Shown piece after piece: positions 1,451 through 7,757 of a stretch of DNA of 8,182 bases (position 1 is its first letter; every line of letters starts with the position of its first letter). Both the position numbers and the translations under genes were made by a program. The notes beneath the pieces are model-generated. The model searched no databases. It saw only the letters and a program-made list of their open reading frames with translations, and was not told where the DNA came from. This stretch comes from an uncultured Erysipelotrichaceae bacterium (GTDB lineage Bacteria > Bacillota_I > Bacilli_A > RF39 > UBA660). The stretch covers positions 1 to 8,182 of the forward strand of contig CADBRE010000058.1 in the NCBI GenBank assembly GCA_902797005.1, in the 5' to 3' direction.

Positions 1451-1478
1451 AAAAAGAAAAAGGTGCTTTTAAGCACCT
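1451..1478 (-). terminator. Intrinsic terminator of the fibre operon
   Basis: AGGTGCTT and AAGCACCT form an 8-bp perfect stem at 1461-1478 with a two-base centre (in practice 7 bp with a 4-base loop). On the minus strand it is followed directly by TTTTCTTTTTT. It sits 24 bases after the stop of the beta-helix gene, the last gene of the unit, and separates it from yqfC. Confidence 0.9.
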
Positions 1479-1502: not shown

Positions 1503-3143
1503 TTAATACTGTGTAGTTCCAGCTACAAATGGAGTTGTTGTATCGAAGTAATTACCAGAAGTAGTTACACCAGTTAAACCTGTTCCACCAGTAATATTAA
1601 CTTTAACGCCATTAGCATAAGCTTTCATAACTGAAACTTTACCGTTATTGTTATCAGCAAATGCATTAGCATTCATAATTTCGAATGTACCTCTTGAAGC
1701 ATTTGTACTAAATGTTCCACCATTAATATTAATAGCAGTAGTTGCTTCATATTTACCTAAGTTAAGTACTGTAATAGCATTACCTATACCATTAGTTGAT
1801 TTAATTGTACCGTTAGTAATATTTAATACTGGATAGATACTAGTAGCACTACTTGCTGCAGGTTTCTCATAAGTACCACTTATTACTGTAATAGCATCTC
1901 CAAACCATGGCTCACCACTATAGTTATAGTAATCTTGATATGAATCATAGTCACCATCATTTGTACTTAAAGATCCATTAATTTCTCCACCATTAATATT
2001 TACTGTAGCCATTCTGTATAGAATACCACCATTGAATGTACCACCATTTACTGTTAAAGTACCTGGGTTTGGAATATAGATATTGTATCCTTTTCCAGAA
2101 TTAAATGTTCCTCCATTGATTTCCATGTTAAAGTCTTTATATTCACCATTAGCATTACTTGAGAAACACAAACTACTACAATTAAATGTTCCATCATTAA
2201 CAACAACTTTTCCGCCATCTACAAATACAGCATTGTAATCTGTATTATATGAACCTTTATTAATTGTTAATATTGCATCTTCAGTTACATAAAATGCATT
2301 AGTTCCAGCTTTACCATTAAATGTGCCATTACCTTCAACTGTAAGATTACCATTAACAGTTATAGAACCATTATAGCTCTTGCTATTTAAATCAAGTGTA
2401 ACATTTTTACCAGCAGGTATTACTAAATTACTGTCAGTCTTAGTTACAGCATTTGTTAATGTAATATCTACATTTGTAAGTGTGCTATCACTTAAAATTG
2501 ATGTTAATTCTCCTACGCCTTCAGCTGATGCATATACAATTGGATCTGATGCAGAAGTTGCATTTGCCATTGCACTAGTCTTCTCAGTTGAAGCTACTAG
2601 ATTAACAGTAAAGTTTATTCCACTTTCTATATCTAATCTAGGTTGTTTAATCATTTCAACTTTAATAGTTACTTTTGTAACTTCACCCTTATTTGTTAAT
2701 TCACTATCAGCTACTGTTTTAGTTACTCTAAAGTATTCTTTAGATGTATTTGCATCTACATCTGCATAGATGTATGCTGGTATTCCTTCTGATTCATTTA
2801 CTACATTATATTCAAGTGTAACACTATCTCCTAGTTCGAATCCTTCACTAATAGCAAATGTTGCTGTGTGATCTCCTGTAACATCTAATGTTACATTTGC
2901 TGCATCTATTCCGTTAGTACTAGACACTACTGCAGCTTTTGTTTCAGCGTCTGTTACATAAGTGTTATCTGCTGCATCAAATTTTACGAATCTTACTTTG
3001 AAATCTTCATTTGTAGCACTACCTTTTGCAGTGGCAGTACCATTAATATTAAATGTTATGTTTGTAAGTGCAGCATATCCTATTCCTAGGAATACTACAC
3101 CGACTAGCATTAATAGCCAGTATTTTCCTTTTAAATTTTTCAT
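1503..3143 (-). CDS. SipW-dependent TasA-like module fused to NGGTF-repeat beta-helix surface protein
   Basis: This is a secreted 546-aa protein. Residues 1-24 form a SipW-type signal peptide (basic start, hydrophobic core, LGIGYA before a likely cut ahead of ALTN). Residues 25-190 form a TasA/camelysin-like beta domain, clearly paralogous to the next gene upstream (shared LTN..., GTA.AKGSAT.EDF.VR and an ..GEV..VTI.V motif). Residues 205-525 hold about ten imperfect copies of a strand-turn unit such as LTVNGGTFNGG, MEINGGTFNSG and ININGGTFST, the pattern of a right-handed beta-helix of the pectin-lyase-like or adhesin kind. The only two cysteines, in CSSLC (322-326), could form a disulfide. 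There is no LPXTG and no C-terminal membrane segment, so I infer attachment by incorporation into or onto a fibre. GAGGT lies 5 bases before the ATG. The gene starts 24 bases after the TasA-like gene ends and is the last of the operon. Ligand and enzymatic activity are unknown; I see no catalytic motif. Confidence 0.85.
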   Translation of the reverse strand: MKNLKGKYWLLMLVGVVFLGIGYAALTNITFNINGTATAKGSATNEDFKVRFVKFDAADNTYVTDAETKAAVVSSTNGIDAANVTLDVTGDHTATFAISEGFELGDSVTLEYNVVNESEGIPAYIYADVDANTSKEYFRVTKTVADSELTNKGEVTKVTIKVEMIKQPRLDIESGINFTVNLVASTEKTSAMANATSASDPIVYASAEGVGELTSILSDSTLTNVDITLTNAVTKTDSNLVIPAGKNVTLDLNSKSYNGSITVNGNLTVEGNGTFNGKAGTNAFYVTEDAILTINKGSYNTDYNAVFVDGGKVVVNDGTFNCSSLCFSSNANGEYKDFNMEINGGTFNSGKGYNIYIPNPGTLTVNGGTFNGGILYRMATVNINGGEINGSLSTNDGDYDSYQDYYNYSGEPWFGDAITVISGTYEKPAASSATSIYPVLNITNGTIKSTNGIGNAITVLNLGKYEATTAININGGTFSTNASRGTFEIMNANAFADNNNGKVSVMKAYANGVKVNITGGTGLTGVTTSGNYFDTTTPFVAGTTQY

Positions 3144-3167
3144 TTTCTACCTCTTTCCTTAATTATT

Positions 3168-3758
3168 TTAGTTAGCAGGTTCTACTGCTTCTGCTTCATA
3201 TGATACTGTAAATGTACCAGTTGTATCTAGTTTGTTTTGTGCTATACATTTAACTGTTACGGTTACTGGTAAAACTTCACCAGGTTGTAATACTTCATTA
3301 GTATCAGCATCAACAGTTACAGTAAATAAATCACTTTGGTCATTAGTTACTGCATCATTTGCTATTTTTATTTTAGCATCTAGATTAGTTGATAGGTTAG
3401 CTACATAATACTTAATAGTTACTTCATCATTTGTAGCCATACCATCTACTGAAAAAGTAGCATGAGTATCATCAGTTAAACTAGCTGTTGCTGTAGCACC
3501 TGCACTAGCAGTAGTATCAACTACAACTGGATTAGCAGCTACAGCTTTAACACTTTCATAAGTATTTGCTGTATCAGTAGCATTTACATATCTTACTCTG
3601 AAATCTTCTTGAGTTGCTGATCCCTTAGCTTTTGCAGTACCTGTTATAGATAAGTTTACATTAGTTAATGCAGCATATCCAATACCTAATGCTATTATAC
3701 CCACTAATACTCCTAATAATAATTTCCCTCTCTTAGAATTTTGTCTGTTCATAATCAT
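3168..3758 (-). CDS. TasA/camelysin-like protein with SipW-type signal peptide (probable major fibre subunit)
   Basis: This 196-aa secreted protein begins with a basic head (MNRQNSKRGK), a hydrophobic core and ALGIGYA|ALTN, the pattern of SipW-dependent signal peptides. The predicted cut after GYA (residue 29) mirrors the known cut after TWA in Bacillus TasA. The mature part is beta-rich and Thr/Ala/Val-rich, with the CalY/TasA-type elements of a conserved first strand, an ATFSVDGMATNDEVTIKYYV.N.S strand pair near 95-120 and a LPVTVTVK strand near 163. Such proteins assemble into extracellular fibres by donation of the N-terminal strand (established for TasA); here this is inference. It is the smallest structural gene and has its own candidate promoter, so it is probably the major subunit. 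Two starts are possible: ATG at 3758 and ATG at 3752. The second has AAGGAG at 8-base spacing and gives MNRQNSK...; the first relies on an earlier AAAGGA. The choice adds or removes two residues only. Confidence 0.87.
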   Translation of the reverse strand: MIMNRQNSKRGKLLLGVLVGIIALGIGYAALTNVNLSITGTAKAKGSATQEDFRVRYVNATDTANTYESVKAVAANPVVVDTTASAGATATASLTDDTHATFSVDGMATNDEVTIKYYVANLSTNLDAKIKIANDAVTNDQSDLFTVTVDADTNEVLQPGEVLPVTVTVKCIAQNKLDTTGTFTVSYEAEAVEPAN

Positions 3759-3795
3759 TTCTCCTTCCTTTTCATAGACTTCCTTCTATTTTCAT
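3759..3795 (-). repeat. Duplicated leader segment carrying two ribosome-binding sites
   Basis: On the minus strand ATGAAAATAGAAGGAAG (3795-3779) recurs 20 bases later as ATGAAAAGGAAGGAGAA (3775-3759), ending at the ATG of the TasA-like gene. Each copy begins with an ATG and carries a purine-rich Shine-Dalgarno-like core. The second copy encodes a six-codon reading frame MKRKEK whose TGA overlaps the ATG at 3758 (ATGA); the first encodes MKIEGSL, whose TGA overlaps the next ATG. I read this primarily as a small tandem duplication. Translation of the micro-frames is unproven. Confidence 0.45.
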
Positions 3796-3799
3796 ATTA

Positions 3800-3828
3800 A
3801 TTTTAGCATATGTTTTTACATAATGCAC
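3800..3828 (-). promoter_or_regulatory. Candidate internal promoter for the TasA-like subunit gene
   Basis: On the minus strand TGCTAAAAT (3808-3800) is an extended -10 with five of six consensus bases. The -35 position (3823-3828, GTGCAT at 17-base spacing) is weak, as is common for extended -10 promoters. It lies in the only sizeable gap inside the operon (104 bases) and would give a leader of about 40 bases ending at the TasA-like gene. It would let the subunit genes be made in excess over the peptidase. Confidence 0.4.
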
Positions 3829-3844
3829 TACATTTTTTTCTTTT

Positions 3845-3862
3845 TTTACAACTCTTTGTAAA
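3845..3862 (-). other. Short hairpin directly after a stop codon, no U-tract
   Basis: TTTACAA and TTGTAAA form a perfect 7-bp stem around a four-base loop. It starts at the base after the TAG of the 245-aa protein gene. On the minus strand it is followed by an A-rich run, not by T, so it is not a standard terminator. It could be an RNA processing or stabilising element between the upstream membrane genes and the downstream subunits. The stem has a single G-C pair and may be chance. Confidence 0.25.
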
Positions 3863-4600
3863 CTAACCACTCTCCTTCTCTTTTATTACCAAATCAGATG
3901 CTATATTTTCTACAGTTAAGACTCCTTCTTTATAAGAATAATTAGCTTCTCCTTCAACAATAACATCTTCTGGAATATCATCTATAAATTCTATTATTAA
4001 ATCATTGCCATCCACTACTATAATAGGATAATTATGATTAACAATATTTTGATAACTAATATTATATACTTCTCTAAATCTAAAGTTTAAATAAGAGTTT
4101 AGTGTGTTTTTACTATCAACTATTTCTTCATTTGTTATATTCTCTTTATACTTAAATGTAATTGTAAATGTTTTCTCTTCTTCTGGTCCAATCTTTTCAT
4201 ACTTATTAATTCCATTTATTTCAAAGATTATAATATCATTTAATTCATCCAAAGTGGTTTTATAAAAATCTTCGTTTTTAACAACTTCTATAAAGCTTAA
4301 ATCTTTAAGAGTGTTATTTTTAATTTTAATTTCATAAGTAATATAAGAATCTTTATCTATTCCTAACACTATTTCTGTATTAAATATAGTTTTAGTAGCG
4401 TTTATAACTCTTGAAGAAGAATCTACATTTACACTGTCTAAGTAATCAGCACTAATTATATCTACACTTGTACTTGCAAGAGCATTTGCATATCCTGTTA
4501 TATTTAAATCAGTACTAGAAATAGTCGCGTATGCTATGCCTAGAAATAAAGTGGATAAGCAAATTAATGAAGTAAAAAACTTTATTTTTTTATTAAGCAT
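3863..4600 (-). CDS. Third SipW-type signal peptide protein, probable minor fibre or anchor component
   Basis: This 245-aa protein has the signature MLNKKIKFF, a hydrophobic core, LFLGIAYA|TISSTDLNITGYANA, so it should be exported and cut by the same peptidase; the likely cut follows AYA at residue 25. Residues about 45-175 form a beta-rich domain with a DSYITYEIKIKNNTLKDL strand pair and GPEEEKTFTITFKYKE, resembling the Ig-like, TasA-type fold but diverged. Residues about 178-241 (starting YNISYQNIVN and ending in VLTVENIASDLVI) form a separate small beta domain that I cannot name. There is no C-terminal anchor or sortase signal. AGGAGG stands 8 bases before the ATG. An earlier out-of-frame ATG lies 2 bases after the Shine-Dalgarno sequence and is too close to be used. 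The stop of the DUF5305 gene is 17 bases upstream. By position and divergence I infer a TapA-like accessory or base subunit; a second polymerising subunit is the alternative. Confidence 0.75.
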   Translation of the reverse strand: MLNKKIKFFTSLICLSTLFLGIAYATISSTDLNITGYANALASTSVDIISADYLDSVNVDSSSRVINATKTIFNTEIVLGIDKDSYITYEIKIKNNTLKDLSFIEVVKNEDFYKTTLDELNDIIIFEINGINKYEKIGPEEEKTFTITFKYKENITNEEIVDSKNTLNSYLNFRFREVYNISYQNIVNHNYPIIVVDGNDLIIEFIDDIPEDVIVEGEANYSYKEGVLTVENIASDLVIKEKESG

Positions 4601-4617
4601 AGCATTTCCCTCCTATT

Positions 4618-6492
4618 TTATTTTTTCTTAGCTCTTGTTGTTTTTGTTTCTTTTTTAGCTTTTGTTAAAGTTACCGGTTTAAACTTTACTGATTTTTCAT
4701 CAGACTTTTTAACAGTAGCTTTTTTACTTGTTTTAACTTCTTTAATCTTAGTTGTTTCTTTCTTTACAGTCTTTGTAGGTTTAACTAAATCCTTAACTAT
4801 CTTTTCAGGACTTTTAAGCTTTCTTTTAACCTTAGGTTTCTCATCTTCCTTAGGTTTAGTTACTTTTGCTTTTTCTTTAATAACTACCTTTTTAACAGTT
4901 TTAGGTTTTTCCTCTTTTTTAGAAGTCTTATTAGGTTTAATCAAATCTTTTACTATCTTTTCTGGTGTCTTTAATTTTCTTTTTACCTTAGGTTTCTCTT
5001 CTTCCTTAAGTTTAGTTACTTTTACAGTTTCTTTCTTTGCACTTTTTACCAAATCTTTTATTATTTTATCTGGTTTTTTAAGCGTTCTTTTAACCTTAGG
5101 TTTTTCTTCTTTAACAGAAGTTTTAACTACTTTTTTAGGCTCTTCTTTGACTTTCTTTGCCTTTATTTCTACTACTTTAGGTGCAGCTTTTTCTTTCTTT
5201 TCAGCTTTCTTAGCAGCAGCTTTTATATCAGATAATTTATAGCTAGTTGTTTTTTCAAGTTGCTCATATAATTTTTCTTTACTGTTTTTATTACCCATTA
5301 TAACATTATCAGCATCAAGTTTATGCATTGTAATTGTTCTAGTTGCATCATCTATCTGGGCATCTATATATTGTTTAGTGAATTTTTGTTCAGCTAGAGT
5401 TTCTTTATTTAAATTCGTAACATCATACTCAGGCGTTTCTACACCGTGTTTATTTGCAATTATATCAACTACTCTTAAAGCATAAGAATAAATTGTATAT
5501 TCATTAGCTGGTATAATAAAGAAGGTTCCTGTATTCTTAGTATTGTGTACCATTAAAATTGGCTTTTGAAGACAATCTCTAACTTCAAGTAAATCATCAA
5601 ATGATTTTAATTTATATACCATTGATGCGCCAATCTTATGTGAAGAAGATATCTCTTGAATATATGGCGAATAGTTACTTAATATTGATTTTAATTTCTT
5701 TTTATATAAAGCTAGAGGTGTTCTACTATTAAAGTAATATATTACTAAGAATAGAATCATTATTGAAGCACCTGTAAGAAGTATAGAACCTACTACAAGA
5801 AATTCTCTTTTTTCTCCATTTACTTTAACTGTTATATAGTTTCCTTTAGAGTTTTGTAAATCACTATTTAAATCAATTGATACAGTCTTAGTTGTTAATG
5901 GTATGTTAAGGCTTATAACTTTGTTATTATTAATCTCTGATAGATATTCATTATCACTATCTAAAAGTGTTACATACATAGCTACTTTTAAAGTGCTATC
6001 AGATTTATCTAAGTCAAAATCTTTTACAAAACCTTTAATTAATTCGTTGTATTTGTTGTAATCTATCTTTATGTTCTTATCAATAGTTATATTACCTTTA
6101 TTTGATTGAGTTCCAGAAGTATATAGTAAATCTTTGTGTTCATAATACGTTACATCATCATCTTTATCTTTAACACTTAACTCAGCCATTATTTTATATG
6201 AATAATTATAATTAATAGCTTCTGTTGGAAAATCTAAATCATATTTATAATCAGCACTTATGTAGTCAATTAGATTTGCTATATATTTACTATCTTTTCC
6301 TAAATATTTGTCTGTAAAGTAATTGTTTTCTTTTAGATATACCTTGTAATCTAAATCACTCTTTTCTACATATTCTATCTTGTAATCAATGTTTTCTTTT
6401 AAATACATACCTATAAAAACGAGAGAACAAAGTACTAATATTCCCGCGAATGTTCCATATACAGGTATTATTTTCATTTTTTTCTTTTTCAT
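4618..6492 (-). CDS. DUF5305-type membrane protein with lysine-rich cytoplasmic tail
   Basis: This 624-aa protein (from the preferred start) has an N-terminal membrane segment (about 8-30), an extracytoplasmic domain of about 200 residues rich in Y, D and N, a second membrane segment (about 231-254), then a cytoplasmic part. The layout and the motif run YKKKLKSILSNY, LKSFDDLLEVRD.LQKPIL, FFIIPANEYTIYSYAL match my memory of DUF5305 proteins, which often lie next to SipW-type peptidases; function unknown. From about residue 425 to the end the sequence is low-complexity and about 37 percent lysine, with three copies of an EKPKVKR.LK.P.KI.KDL.K unit. Start: ATG at 6492 has GAGGTG 4 bases upstream and begins 13 bases after the peptidase stop. 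An earlier ATG at 6528 has no ribosome binding site and would overlap the peptidase gene by 23 bases, so I rejected it. A scaffold or chaperone for the peptidase or its substrates is inference. Confidence 0.72.
   Translation of the reverse strand: MKKKKMKIIPVYGTFAGILVLCSLVFIGMYLKENIDYKIEYVEKSDLDYKVYLKENNYFTDKYLGKDSKYIANLIDYISADYKYDLDFPTEAINYNYSYKIMAELSVKDKDDDVTYYEHKDLLYTSGTQSNKGNITIDKNIKIDYNKYNELIKGFVKDFDLDKSDSTLKVAMYVTLLDSDNEYLSEINNNKVISLNIPLTTKTVSIDLNSDLQNSKGNYITVKVNGEKREFLVVGSILLTGASIMILFLVIYYFNSRTPLALYKKKLKSILSNYSPYIQEISSSHKIGASMVYKLKSFDDLLEVRDCLQKPILMVHNTKNTGTFFIIPANEYTIYSYALRVVDIIANKHGVETPEYDVTNLNKETLAEQKFTKQYIDAQIDDATRTITMHKLDADNVIMGNKNSKEKLYEQLEKTTSYKLSDIKAAAKKAEKKEKAAPKVVEIKAKKVKEEPKKVVKTSVKEEKPKVKRTLKKPDKIIKDLVKSAKKETVKVTKLKEEEKPKVKRKLKTPEKIVKDLIKPNKTSKKEEKPKTVKKVVIKEKAKVTKPKEDEKPKVKRKLKSPEKIVKDLVKPTKTVKKETTKIKEVKTSKKATVKKSDEKSVKFKPVTLTKAKKETKTTRAKKK
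4780..5109 (-). repeat. Three-copy coding repeat in the lysine-rich tail
   Basis: A 22-residue unit of the form (E/D)EKPKVKR.LK.P(E/D)KI(I/V)KDL(I/V)K is encoded three times, at 5044-5109, 4936-5001 and 4780-4845. The linkers of 14 and 30 residues are rich in K, T and E. Each copy has a proline-containing basic head and an amphipathic KIVKDLVK segment that could form a short helix. The differences between copies are mostly conservative, so the unit seems kept by selection rather than freshly duplicated. Confidence 0.7.
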
Positions 6493-6496
6493 TTTA

Positions 6497-6502
6497 CACC
6501 TC
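6497..6502 (-). promoter_or_regulatory. Ribosome binding site that decides the DUF5305 gene start
   Basis: GAGGTG on the minus strand lies between the peptidase stop codon and the ATG at 6492, four bases before that ATG. No comparable site precedes the earlier ATG at 6528. Confidence 0.75.
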
Positions 6503-6505
6503 TTT

Positions 6506-7636
6506 TTATTTCTTTTTAAACATTTCATTAAGCCAGACAGTCGGTCTTCCTATTACCGGAATACTAAAGTTAACTCTTCCAAGTATTGCTTCTTCTTTTA
6601 TGAATCCATCATCTTGCATCTGGTTATTATCGCCTTTAGTATAATATAGTTTAGCATTATTTCTAGTATCTATTTTAATAACCCTATGGACTAAAATACG
6701 GTCTTCTTTTTCAAAGACTAATATATCTCCTACGTTTATTTCGCCTTTGTTTATTTTACTATCATAGACTATTACATCGCCTTTATCTATAGTCTTTCTC
6801 ATTGATCCAGATCCAATCACTAATGCACCGTATCTAAATTTACATGATATTAGCATTATAAATACTGCCATTACTGAAAATGATAAGATGCTTAATATAT
6901 TGCTTTTCCCCTCTTTTTTGATTTCAAGACTTTCTTTTTTATTTCCAAAATTATCTTCAAGTATATAGTAAACAATTAATGGATAAATCATTCTAAAGAA
7001 AGTTCTAAAGAAAATGTACACATCAGGTATTATTGGAATAATGTATGAATATAAGCTTATTACTAATCTATATATTATTACAGGTTTAGGTCCAAATCTT
7101 TTACTTATATAGTTATAAAGTAAATTAGACGCTACTGCTGCAAATGTTAAATAACCTATCGACAATAGGAAATCATCCAGTGATGAGAAAGCATATAGAT
7201 TTGAGTATATTGATATATCTATTAAAACGCCTATTATAAAGTTAAATACCATAGATACTTTATTCTCAATAGTTATAAACTTATATCTTATTATTTCACT
7301 AGATATTATTATTGCCACGATTGGAATGATATATTTATAAAGCGTAGTTAAACTAAATGTATGTAATGATTTATAAAAGCCAGTATATATTCCAAATGTA
7401 TAAAAGATTCCTAAATATATTACTGATAATATTGCTATAAGCCTTGTTGCTTGTTTCTTTCTAATGTGAAGTCTAGTACTCTTTCTAATTAAGAAATACA
7501 CCATTACTCCTACTGCTGACAAAAATAAAGCAAGTTCAATTTTACTATTTAATAGTCTTGTGAAGAATAAAGAAGTTGTAAGTACGATGACTAAAATAGC
7601 TTGTAATATATATAGTTTTATTTTGTCTTTTTTCAC
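6506..7636 (-). CDS. sipW: Signal peptidase I, SipW/Sec11 (ER) type, with multi-span N-terminal domain
   Basis: This membrane serine protease should remove signal peptides from the three SipW-type proteins encoded downstream. The catalytic domain is residues about 250-376. It has a membrane anchor, then GSGSM with the nucleophile Ser278, DKGDVIVYD, LVHRVI with His317 where bacterial P-type enzymes have lysine, and TKGDNN...DD (334-343). Ser/His and the GDNN..DD box define the Sec11/SipW class. The chain ends IPVIGRPTVWLNEMFKKK with no C-terminal membrane segment. B. subtilis SipW is about 190 aa; this one is 376 aa because residues 1-240 add roughly seven or eight hydrophobic segments of unknown function. 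The start is GTG: the frame has a TGA 10 bases upstream, GAGGTGA lies 9 bases before it, and the next methionine is far inside. It is the first gene of the unit, 13 bases before the DUF5305 gene. The symbol denotes class, not proven orthology. Confidence 0.92.
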   Translation of the reverse strand: MKKDKIKLYILQAILVIVLTTSLFFTRLLNSKIELALFLSAVGVMVYFLIRKSTRLHIRKKQATRLIAILSVIYLGIFYTFGIYTGFYKSLHTFSLTTLYKYIIPIVAIIISSEIIRYKFITIENKVSMVFNFIIGVLIDISIYSNLYAFSSLDDFLLSIGYLTFAAVASNLLYNYISKRFGPKPVIIYRLVISLYSYIIPIIPDVYIFFRTFFRMIYPLIVYYILEDNFGNKKESLEIKKEGKSNILSILSFSVMAVFIMLISCKFRYGALVIGSGSMRKTIDKGDVIVYDSKINKGEINVGDILVFEKEDRILVHRVIKIDTRNNAKLYYTKGDNNQMQDDGFIKEEAILGRVNFSIPVIGRPTVWLNEMFKKK

Positions 7637-7677: not shown

Positions 7678-7706
7678 ATTATAACATGACTATTATTTTT
7701 TTAAAA
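7678..7706 (-). promoter_or_regulatory. Extended -10 promoter of the sipW fibre operon
   Basis: On the minus strand TGTTATAAT (7686-7678) is a perfect TATAAT with the TGn extension. The -35 at 17-base spacing (7701-7706, TTTTAA) is weak. A TTGAAA is present further upstream but 27 bases from the -10, too far to pair with it. Transcription would start near 7671, giving a leader of about 35 bases. The site lies between the tuf terminator and the first gene, where a promoter is required. It looks like a vegetative sigma-A promoter. Confidence 0.65.
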
Positions 7707-7717
7707 CATTTTTCAAC

Positions 7718-7745
7718 AAAAAAACCGAGAAATTTCTTTCTCAGT
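7718..7745 (-). terminator. Intrinsic terminator of tuf
   Basis: On the minus strand ACTGAGAAA pairs with TTTCTCGGT around a GAAA loop (7745-7724), nine pairs including one U-G, followed by a run of seven T (7724-7718). It begins 12 bases after the tuf stop codon. Confidence 0.88.
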
Positions 7746-7757
7746 TTAATAGTTTAA

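What the first reader, a model, noticed from the sequence alone, without database searches (positions are those of the whole stretch)
1503..7636. A self-contained five-gene SipW-dependent surface-fibre operon with unusual content
One promoter, five co-directional genes spaced 13, 17, 104 and 24 bases apart, and one terminator. It encodes a dedicated Sec11-type peptidase, a DUF5305 membrane partner and three substrates sharing SipW-type signal peptides. Compared with tapA-sipW-tasA it adds a membrane partner with a basic cytoplasmic tail and a beta-helix fusion, and its peptidase has an extra membrane domain. Seen: gene order, signal motifs, catalytic motifs. Known: SipW cuts TasA and TapA, and TasA forms matrix fibres. 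Inferred: these five genes jointly build a fibre or coat in this lineage.
Basis: partly seen in the sequence, partly recalled or inferred. Interest (0 to 1): 0.72.

Follow-up and report, generated by a model that had tools for sequence, protein, structure and literature searches.

The report
Surface-filament operon with paired membrane peptidase
This five-gene cluster of an uncultured bacterium, likely one operon, encodes a predicted signal-cutting enzyme with an extra membrane domain, a second membrane protein whose gene sits beside such enzymes in many bacteria and some salt-loving archaea, and three predicted secreted proteins that likely join into a surface fibre, which would make the second protein a missing part of how such fibres are built.

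Summary
In detail: five minus-strand genes, gaps 13, 17, 104 and 24 bases, between an EF-Tu terminator-like hairpin and a second one. They encode a Sec11-type signal peptidase with a 245-residue membrane domain, a DUF5305 protein and three proteins with SipW-type signal peptides. In 193 genomes of the same family, 102 of 113 listed long Sec11 matches lie beside DUF5305; 0 of 35 listed short ones do. The pair also stands on 4 of 6 haloarchaeal plasmid records that match DUF5305. The membrane domain has three residues invariant in 92 of 92 sequences. Small substrates of a chosen subset of related modules match AbpX, a donor-strand filament subunit, modestly; the window's own family alone does not. 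The fifth protein fuses such a domain to a predicted adhesin-like beta-helix. I read it as a filament-building module in which long Sec11 and DUF5305 likely form one processing and assembly platform. The exact five-gene order was seen in no other locus examined; co-transcription, filament formation and the partner's role are inferred. No held paper mentions DUF5305.

The parts
6506..7636 (-). Sec11-type signal peptidase with multi-pass N-terminal membrane domain (long Sec11, 376 aa, GTG start)
   Evidence: TIGR02228 83.6 bits, cut-off 51.85; PDB match to SEC11C 7p2q E 5.2e-12; Ser278, His317, Asp336 each 91 of 92 in the alignment of long Sec11
6902..7636 (-). extra membrane domain of the peptidase (residues 1-245), with invariant Gly82, Glu114, Arg117
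   Evidence: conserved in 92 of 92 sequences; no Pfam family matches more than 1 of 29 members, best E 0.0011; no PDB sequence match better than E 0.42
6518..6892 (-). catalytic Sec11 domain of the peptidase (about residues 249-373)
4618..6492 (-). DUF5305 membrane protein (624 aa): membrane helix, beta-sandwich ectodomain, second membrane helix, predicted cytosolic alpha/beta domain, Lys-rich tail
   Evidence: PF17231 52.9 bits; AlphaFold2 model of residues 1-400, mean pLDDT 76.3; topology inferred
5827..6384 (-). ectodomain of DUF5305 (model residues 37-222), absent from short forms in relatives
   Evidence: model; short forms at 11 loci, all 11 mapped
4621..5238 (-). basic, predicted cytosolic tail (206 residues, 81 Lys/Arg, 29 Asp/Glu) with three copies of a KPKVKR-type repeat
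3863..4600 (-). substrate 1 (245 aa), SipW-type signal peptide; related to the N-domain of larger substrates downstream of DUF5305 in relatives
   Evidence: phmmer to the L079 downstream protein E 5.5e-24, residues 4-185
3168..3758 (-). substrate 2 (196 aa), small one-domain SipW-type protein, likely main filament subunit
   Evidence: family alignment A2; hhalign to module small substrates without P0004: 99.6% probability, 97.7% for the mature part alone
1503..3143 (-). substrate 3 (546 aa): substrate-2-like N-domain fused to a predicted beta-helix
   Evidence: phmmer to substrate 2 2e-30; model mean pLDDT 81.7
2574..3062 (-). N-terminal beta-sandwich of substrate 3 and the segment before it (residues 28-190); residues 28-40 are the candidate donor strand (21-40 have pLDDT under 50)
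1524..2546 (-). predicted right-handed beta-helix of substrate 3 (residues 200-540)
7678..7705 (-). promoter-like site (TTTAAA, 16, TATAAT, TG before the second hexamer)
   Evidence: such sites are not in excess of shuffles
1461..1478 (-). terminator-like hairpin after the last gene
7722..7747 (-). terminator-like hairpin of the upstream tuf gene, separating it from the cluster

Best explanation
The window holds a likely Sec11-DUF5305 operon whose long peptidase is predicted to cut the signal peptides of three secreted beta-rich proteins, which likely join by donor-strand exchange into a surface filament on a membrane platform that would be formed by the peptidase and DUF5305. Proposed steps: (1) substrates are exported through Sec (inferred from signal peptides); (2) long Sec11 removes the signal peptide and frees the conserved strand that follows it (cleavage inferred; catalytic residues shown); (3) DUF5305, held to the peptidase's membrane domain, keeps the freed subunit from joining at random and hands it to the growing filament, with its ectodomain as holder and its cytosolic domain as the constant, controlling part (inferred); (4) substrate 2 is the main subunit, substrate 1 a base or starter, and substrate 3 places a beta-helix adhesin on the filament, most likely at its tip (inferred).
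For: Gene pairing: Sec11 lies immediately upstream of DUF5305 on the same strand in 72 of 80 named loci, median gap 11 bases; in 193 same-family genomes 102 of 113 listed long Sec11 matches have DUF5305 within 2.5 kb, against 0 of 35 listed short Sec11 matches, with Sec11 upstream in 101 of 102 pairs. Pairwise distances of the membrane domain and DUF5305 correlate at 0.85 over 70 loci (500 permutations, maximum 0.10), though common descent alone can do this. Substrates: signal end plus following strand in 65 of 67 small and 37 of 47 large module substrates, against 9 of 66 other proteins with an N-terminal membrane segment in the same loci (the pattern was made after seeing these loci). Family: A8 (33 small substrates: 31 of the 67, chosen by eye as one subtype, plus L053 and window P0004) matches AbpX at E 3.6e-5 and 3.5e-4; mature parts of the 31 alone, E 6.7e-4 as best hit, over positions 10-89 of 168; profiles A3 and A7 as controls give nothing better than 0.04 and 0.42. 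TasA, ABP and 'ABPx' are named donor-strand-exchanged fibres (PMC11952670, passage); that the PDB's AbpX is this ABPx is taken from the name. In TasA the strand just after the signal peptide is the donor strand (PMC9674648, passages). Substrate 3 model: residues 21-40 have pLDDT under 50. Modularity: P0110 joins a 65% identical N-domain to a different C-terminus. No LPXTG-like end (motif recalled) is seen by eye in substrates 1-3.
Confidence: 0.6

Rival explanations
1. The operon displays separate surface proteins rather than a fibre: long Sec11 matures them and DUF5305 anchors or retains them at the membrane; the beta-helix protein is a stand-alone adhesin.
For: Substrates are very variable between loci, with an open frame of at least 2,844 residues beside a short DUF5305 form (L192); the beta-helix resembles adhesins of the SRRP type; TasA or AbpX homology of the window's own proteins is not shown.
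Against: The conserved strand after the signal peptide recurs in 65 of 67 small and 37 of 47 large substrates, and a subtype of small substrates matches AbpX, which fits filament subunits better than unrelated cargo.
Confidence: 0.22
2. DUF5305 is a sensor, not an assembly factor: its ectodomain reads substrate or filament levels and its cytosolic domain passes the signal inward.
For: The predicted cytosolic domain and the two membrane helices are the constant part, kept in 11 of 11 mapped short forms without ectodomain; one homologue is fused to an MshEN domain, E 6.9e-10; tails differ in charge. SipW of B. subtilis is described as having a second, regulatory role (PMC13082335, introduction).
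Against: The tight pairing with long Sec11 and the tolerance of loss of the ectodomain fit a partner of the peptidase better than a receptor; no regulator was recognised in the cluster.
Confidence: 0.13
3. The products serve the spore coat, since yqfC and yqfD lie next door.
For: yqfC and yqfD follow downstream; TasA was first described as spore-coat associated (PMC9674648, passage).
Against: A terminator-like hairpin separates them. No tuf match lies within about 1.5 kb of yqfD in the 21 relatives' loci read, and in the module maps yqfC/yqfD appear only in the window and in L041, where the DUF5305 match is below the cut-off, so the neighbourhood looks accidental.
Confidence: 0.05

Closest known systems
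tapA-sipW-tasA operon of Bacillus subtilis and sipW-tasA / calY / capP of B. cereus
   Same: Sec11-type (SipW-type) peptidase encoded with SipW-type secreted beta-rich substrates; probable donor strand right after the signal peptide; no sortase signal seen by eye
   Different: Peptidase has a 245-residue extra membrane domain and scores 58.9 bits against the SipW model (cut-off 190); a DUF5305 partner is present; no window protein matches PF12389; CapP carries DUF4047 (PMC13082335, passage)
AbpX / archaeal bundling pili (donor-strand-exchanged fibres)
   Same: A subtype of module small substrates matches AbpX over profile positions 38-165 of 190 (E 3.6e-5)
   Different: The window's own family gives no match alone; whether AbpX genes have a DUF5305 neighbour was not tested
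sipW-bsaA operon of Clostridium perfringens
   Same: SipW needed for secretion and polymerisation of a small extracellular protein (PMC7395162, passages)
   Different: No DUF5305 or long peptidase is named in the passages read
Eukaryotic signal peptidase complex (SEC11 with SPC22/23)
   Same: The catalytic domain matches SEC11A and SEC11C; a membrane protein with a predicted beta-sandwich outside the membrane is encoded beside it (SPC22/23 form recalled)
   Different: DUF5305 has two predicted membrane helices and a cytosolic domain; no SPC22/23 chain is among the shown fold matches, which excludes nothing
Serine-rich-repeat protein (SRRP) adhesins of Lactobacillus reuteri
   Different: An alginate lyase, glucanases and phage depolymerases score alike; no serine-rich repeats seen in substrate 3

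Membership tests
Sec11/archaeal-type signal peptidase I (TIGR02228) | profile score over the curated cut-off | tested here: met
   83.6 bits, cut-off 51.85
Sec11/archaeal-type signal peptidase I (TIGR02228) | Ser, His and Asp catalytic residues (roles recalled) | tested here: met
   Ser278, His317, Asp336 present; each 91 of 92 in the family alignment
SipW of Bacilli (NF046067) | profile score over the curated cut-off | tested here: not met
   58.9 bits, cut-off 190
DUF5305 (PF17231) | profile score over the gathering score | tested here: met
   52.9 bits, cut-off 29
TasA / camelysin (PF12389) | Pfam match of the substrates | tested here: not met
   no match of P0003-P0005, none in the genome; 4 of 39 aligned substrates (37 of modules, 2 of the window) match weakly, best 0.0011
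TasA / camelysin (PF12389) | jellyroll / Ig-like fold with N-terminal donor strand | tested here: inconclusive
   beta-sandwich predicted for substrate 3 N-domain; thread filament 7pnb at Foldseek rank 41, E 0.15; TasA not listed
AbpX / archaeal bundling pilus subunit | sequence match to the subunit | tested here: inconclusive
   E 3.6e-5 and 6.7e-4 for a chosen subtype of module relatives; 0.064 for the mixed set; none for the window's own family
TasA / AbpX donor-strand filaments | forms filaments by donor-strand exchange | not testable with these tools
   needs microscopy or complex structures
Eukaryotic-type signal peptidase complex | accessory subunit homologous to SPC22/23 | tested here: inconclusive
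   not among shown fold matches; only sequence match at E 10 or better is a CheA at 0.04
SRRP-type beta-helix adhesin | right-handed beta-helix binding region | tested here: met
SRRP-type beta-helix adhesin | serine-rich repeat region in the same protein | tested here: not met
   not seen in the sequence of P0005 (by eye)
SRRP-type beta-helix adhesin | dedicated glycosylation and export genes | not tested
   none in the window; the genome was not searched

The most novel reading that the evidence does not exclude
Long Sec11 and DUF5305 are the two subunits of a prokaryotic signal peptidase complex that couples signal-peptide cutting to filament assembly from the membrane side: the invariant Gly82, Glu114 and Arg117 of the peptidase's membrane domain bind the DUF5305 membrane hairpin, the DUF5305 cytosolic domain is the constant engine or gate, and the ectodomain is an exchangeable subunit holder. 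This would be a further way to run donor-strand pili, beside chaperone-usher and TapA-started TasA, shared by gut Bacilli, Clostridia and haloarchaea.
Probability: 0.3. Interest if true: 0.82.

Novelty: new variant of a known kind. Interest (0 to 1): 0.6.

Why it matters
DUF5305 is a family of unknown function in Pfam, and neither its name nor its accession occurs in a paper of the held library. Its near-constant pairing with a peptidase that carries an unexplained conserved membrane domain gives it a first testable function. It also suggests that SipW-type filament systems, known mainly from Bacillus, exist with their own membrane machinery in uncultured gut and rumen bacteria and in haloarchaea, where such surface fibres would shape adhesion and biofilm life. 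In the passages read, the helpers named for TasA-type filaments (TapA, CapP) are exported proteins processed by SipW; no membrane-embedded helper besides SipW is named.

Tried and rejected

Considered and rejected: DUF5305 as a homologue of the substrates (hhalign 21%; 0% without signal peptides); the tail's positive charge as a general feature; an accidental SipW locus (pairing statistics). Presence or absence in the same-genus genome G001 could not be read: no peptidase, DUF5305 or P0005 match, but its yqfD match starts at a contig end and it is 86% complete.

Selections and rows dropped: one search used one peptide pattern and kept the best 80 of 110 stretches. A1 held 22 of the 85 DUF5305 homologues; A3 held all 85. 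A6 held 37 of 67 small module substrates, A8 31 of 67 plus L053 and P0004, A10 the same 31; the 31 were picked by eye. A9 held 18 proteins picked by eye from 30 loci. In one search two Sec11 matches that start between residues 60 and 230 were set aside, and matches that one search did not list are missing. In one search three identical sequences of 95 and one 63-residue fragment were left out; upstream proteins outside 150-260 aa and downstream proteins under 300 aa, over 150 bases away or without an N-terminal membrane segment; one near-identical locus of 71. For the P0005 model six of 33 aligned rows were left out to keep misaligned parts away. In one search only chosen neighbour genes of the six plasmid records were tested.
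Full report
WHAT IS THERE. The window is the whole contig C58 (8,182 bases) of an unnamed 1.02-Mb genome bin in 175 contigs, 90.67% complete. On the minus strand, between the end of tuf (EF-Tu) and yqfC/yqfD, lie five genes with gaps of 13, 17, 104 and 24 bases and a sequence like a ribosome-binding site before each. A longer start for DUF5305 at 6528 is possible, but the ribosome-binding site favours 6492. Terminator-like hairpins close tuf (7747-7722) and the cluster (1478-1461). Promoter-like sites are not in excess of chance, so a single promoter is plausible only.

THE PEPTIDASE. P0001 is a Sec11-type signal peptidase: TIGR02228 83.6 bits against a cut-off of 51.85; SipW model 58.9 against 190; PDB SEC11C E 5.2e-12. 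Its first 245 residues form a multi-pass membrane domain. In an alignment of 92 long Sec11 proteins, Ser278, His317 and Asp336 are each kept in 91, and Gly82, Glu114 and Arg117 of the membrane domain in all 92; Pro201, Pro204 and Pro219 in about 95%. No Pfam family matched more than one of 29 such domains, and the PDB gave nothing better than E 0.42. The conservation suggests that the domain is more than an anchor; what it does is unknown.

THE PAIR IS A MODULE. A scan of genome contigs with a DUF5305 alignment, by one peptide pattern, gave 110 confirmed stretches, of which the best 80 loci were kept. Sec11 lies within 4.5 kb in 74 of 80 and immediately upstream on the same strand in 72 of 80, median gap 11 bases; 71 of these 72 peptidases are 370-406 aa, one is a 63-aa fragment. 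The usual order is small SipW-type protein, long Sec11, DUF5305, larger SipW-type protein. The window keeps the core but has the small substrate downstream; the nearest layout is L187 (small, Sec11, DUF5305, small, 505 aa). In 193 genomes of the same family, 94 have DUF5305 (87 over cut-off) and 109 match P0001 at E 1e-10. Of 113 listed long Sec11 matches, 102 have DUF5305 within 2.5 kb on the same strand; of 35 listed short Sec11 matches, none; Sec11 is upstream in 101 of 102 pairs. Seen from DUF5305, 102 of 139 matches (96 of the 122 listed down to the cut-off) have a long Sec11 nearby. In a phylum-wide draw 12 of 295 genomes have DUF5305 (9 over cut-off), the window's own included, so the module is concentrated in this family and its kin. 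Records named are mainly Bacilli, Firmicutes, Tenericutes and Clostridia bins, many from rumen and gut. Distances of the membrane domain and DUF5305 correlate at 0.85 over 70 loci (permutation maximum 0.10), the catalytic domain at 0.825, the small substrate at 0.71-0.78 with each over 66 loci; shared descent can explain this.

BEYOND BACTERIA. One contig (L200) of a distant bin looks haloarchaeal by eye and holds Sec11, DUF5305 and proteins with SipW-like signals. Six haloarchaeal plasmid records match its DUF5305. In four of six an annotated signal peptidase I is the neighbour (three) or one gene away (one) and matches my Sec11 profile (E 1.5e-11 to 2.5e-17). In the two Haloferax records no Sec11 is among the four neighbour genes tested in each, but proteins with SipW-like signals (by eye) lie beside DUF5305. 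The archaeal peptidases carry their extra hydrophobic segments after the catalytic domain, so the layout differs. A bacterial DUF5305 in L201 is fused to an MshEN domain (E 6.9e-10).

HOW IT PROBABLY WORKS. Shown: gene order, catalytic residues, pairing, shared signal and strand. Inferred: long Sec11 cuts the signal peptides and frees the donor strand; DUF5305, held to the peptidase's membrane domain, keeps freed subunits from joining at random and feeds them to a filament; substrate 3 places an adhesin on it. The nearest worked-out system is TapA-assisted TasA assembly, compared by its authors with chaperone-usher pili (PMC10151520, passages). It would work like that system; membership in the TasA family is not met by Pfam and open by fold.

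NOVELTY. Ten literature searches were made. DUF5305 and PF17231 occur in no held paper; subscription papers are mostly not held. I rate it a new variant of a known kind: a SipW-type secretion system with its own membrane partner. Of the papers cited, PMC9674648, PMC11952670, PMC10151520 and PMC7395162 were seen as search listing and passages, and PMC13082335 as abstract, introduction and passages; PMC9715654 (archaeal thread, passages) was consulted and says that the gene cluster of that filament revealed no definite chaperone or usher.

Noticed in passing
own genome C65, locus L064:2635-4957: A second, short Sec11 (241 aa) with two neighbours that look by eye like its own SipW-type substrates; the genome's only DUF5305 match is in the window, so this genome seems to run two such systems.
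   Followed up: partly
L201:7837-9774: A 645-aa DUF5305 protein with a C-terminal MshEN domain (E 6.9e-10), and a Sec11 with the catalytic domain first; MshEN is recalled as a cyclic-di-GMP-binding domain, which would hint at control of export or assembly.
   Followed up: no
L200 (G248:C49:1-12949): A contig of a bin placed in the same class that looks haloarchaeal by its acidic proteins; a likely binning contaminant.
   Followed up: no
window 1524-2546 and proteins P0115, P0116, P0118-P0132, P0134: The beta-helix of substrate 3 is 38-39% identical, over 46-50% of P0005, to helices in 18 proteins of 807-950 aa with S-layer homology domains, which suggests domain exchange between two ways of surface display.
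   Followed up: no
L192 (G034:C80:3-8534), L059:1-7149: Very large open frames (2,844 and 2,383 residues, running off the contig or stretch) with SipW-type signals by eye lie near the short DUF5305 form without ectodomain.
   Followed up: partly
G034 and G425: Single genomes with four and six peptidase matches and five DUF5305 matches each, suggesting expansion of the module within a genome.
   Followed up: no
window 3759-3862: The 104-base gap before the likely main subunit holds an AT-rich inverted repeat and a TGCTAAAAT stretch that could be an extended -10 site; separate control of the main subunit is possible (by eye).
   Followed up: no
DUF5305 tails of L077, L081, L083, L086, L088-L093: In these ten loci the tail is acidic; nine of the ten (not L077) show near the end a shared motif of the type VDPxTLxxPLKKIIGxVRRKAE instead of a basic end.
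   Followed up: no
G018:C34:1121-1426 (in L053) and G245:C6:24192-24380: Two small substrates beside a Sec11-DUF5305 pair match the TasA family PF12389 beyond the signal peptide, but under the cut-off (E 2.9e-4 and 8.3e-4).
   Followed up: no
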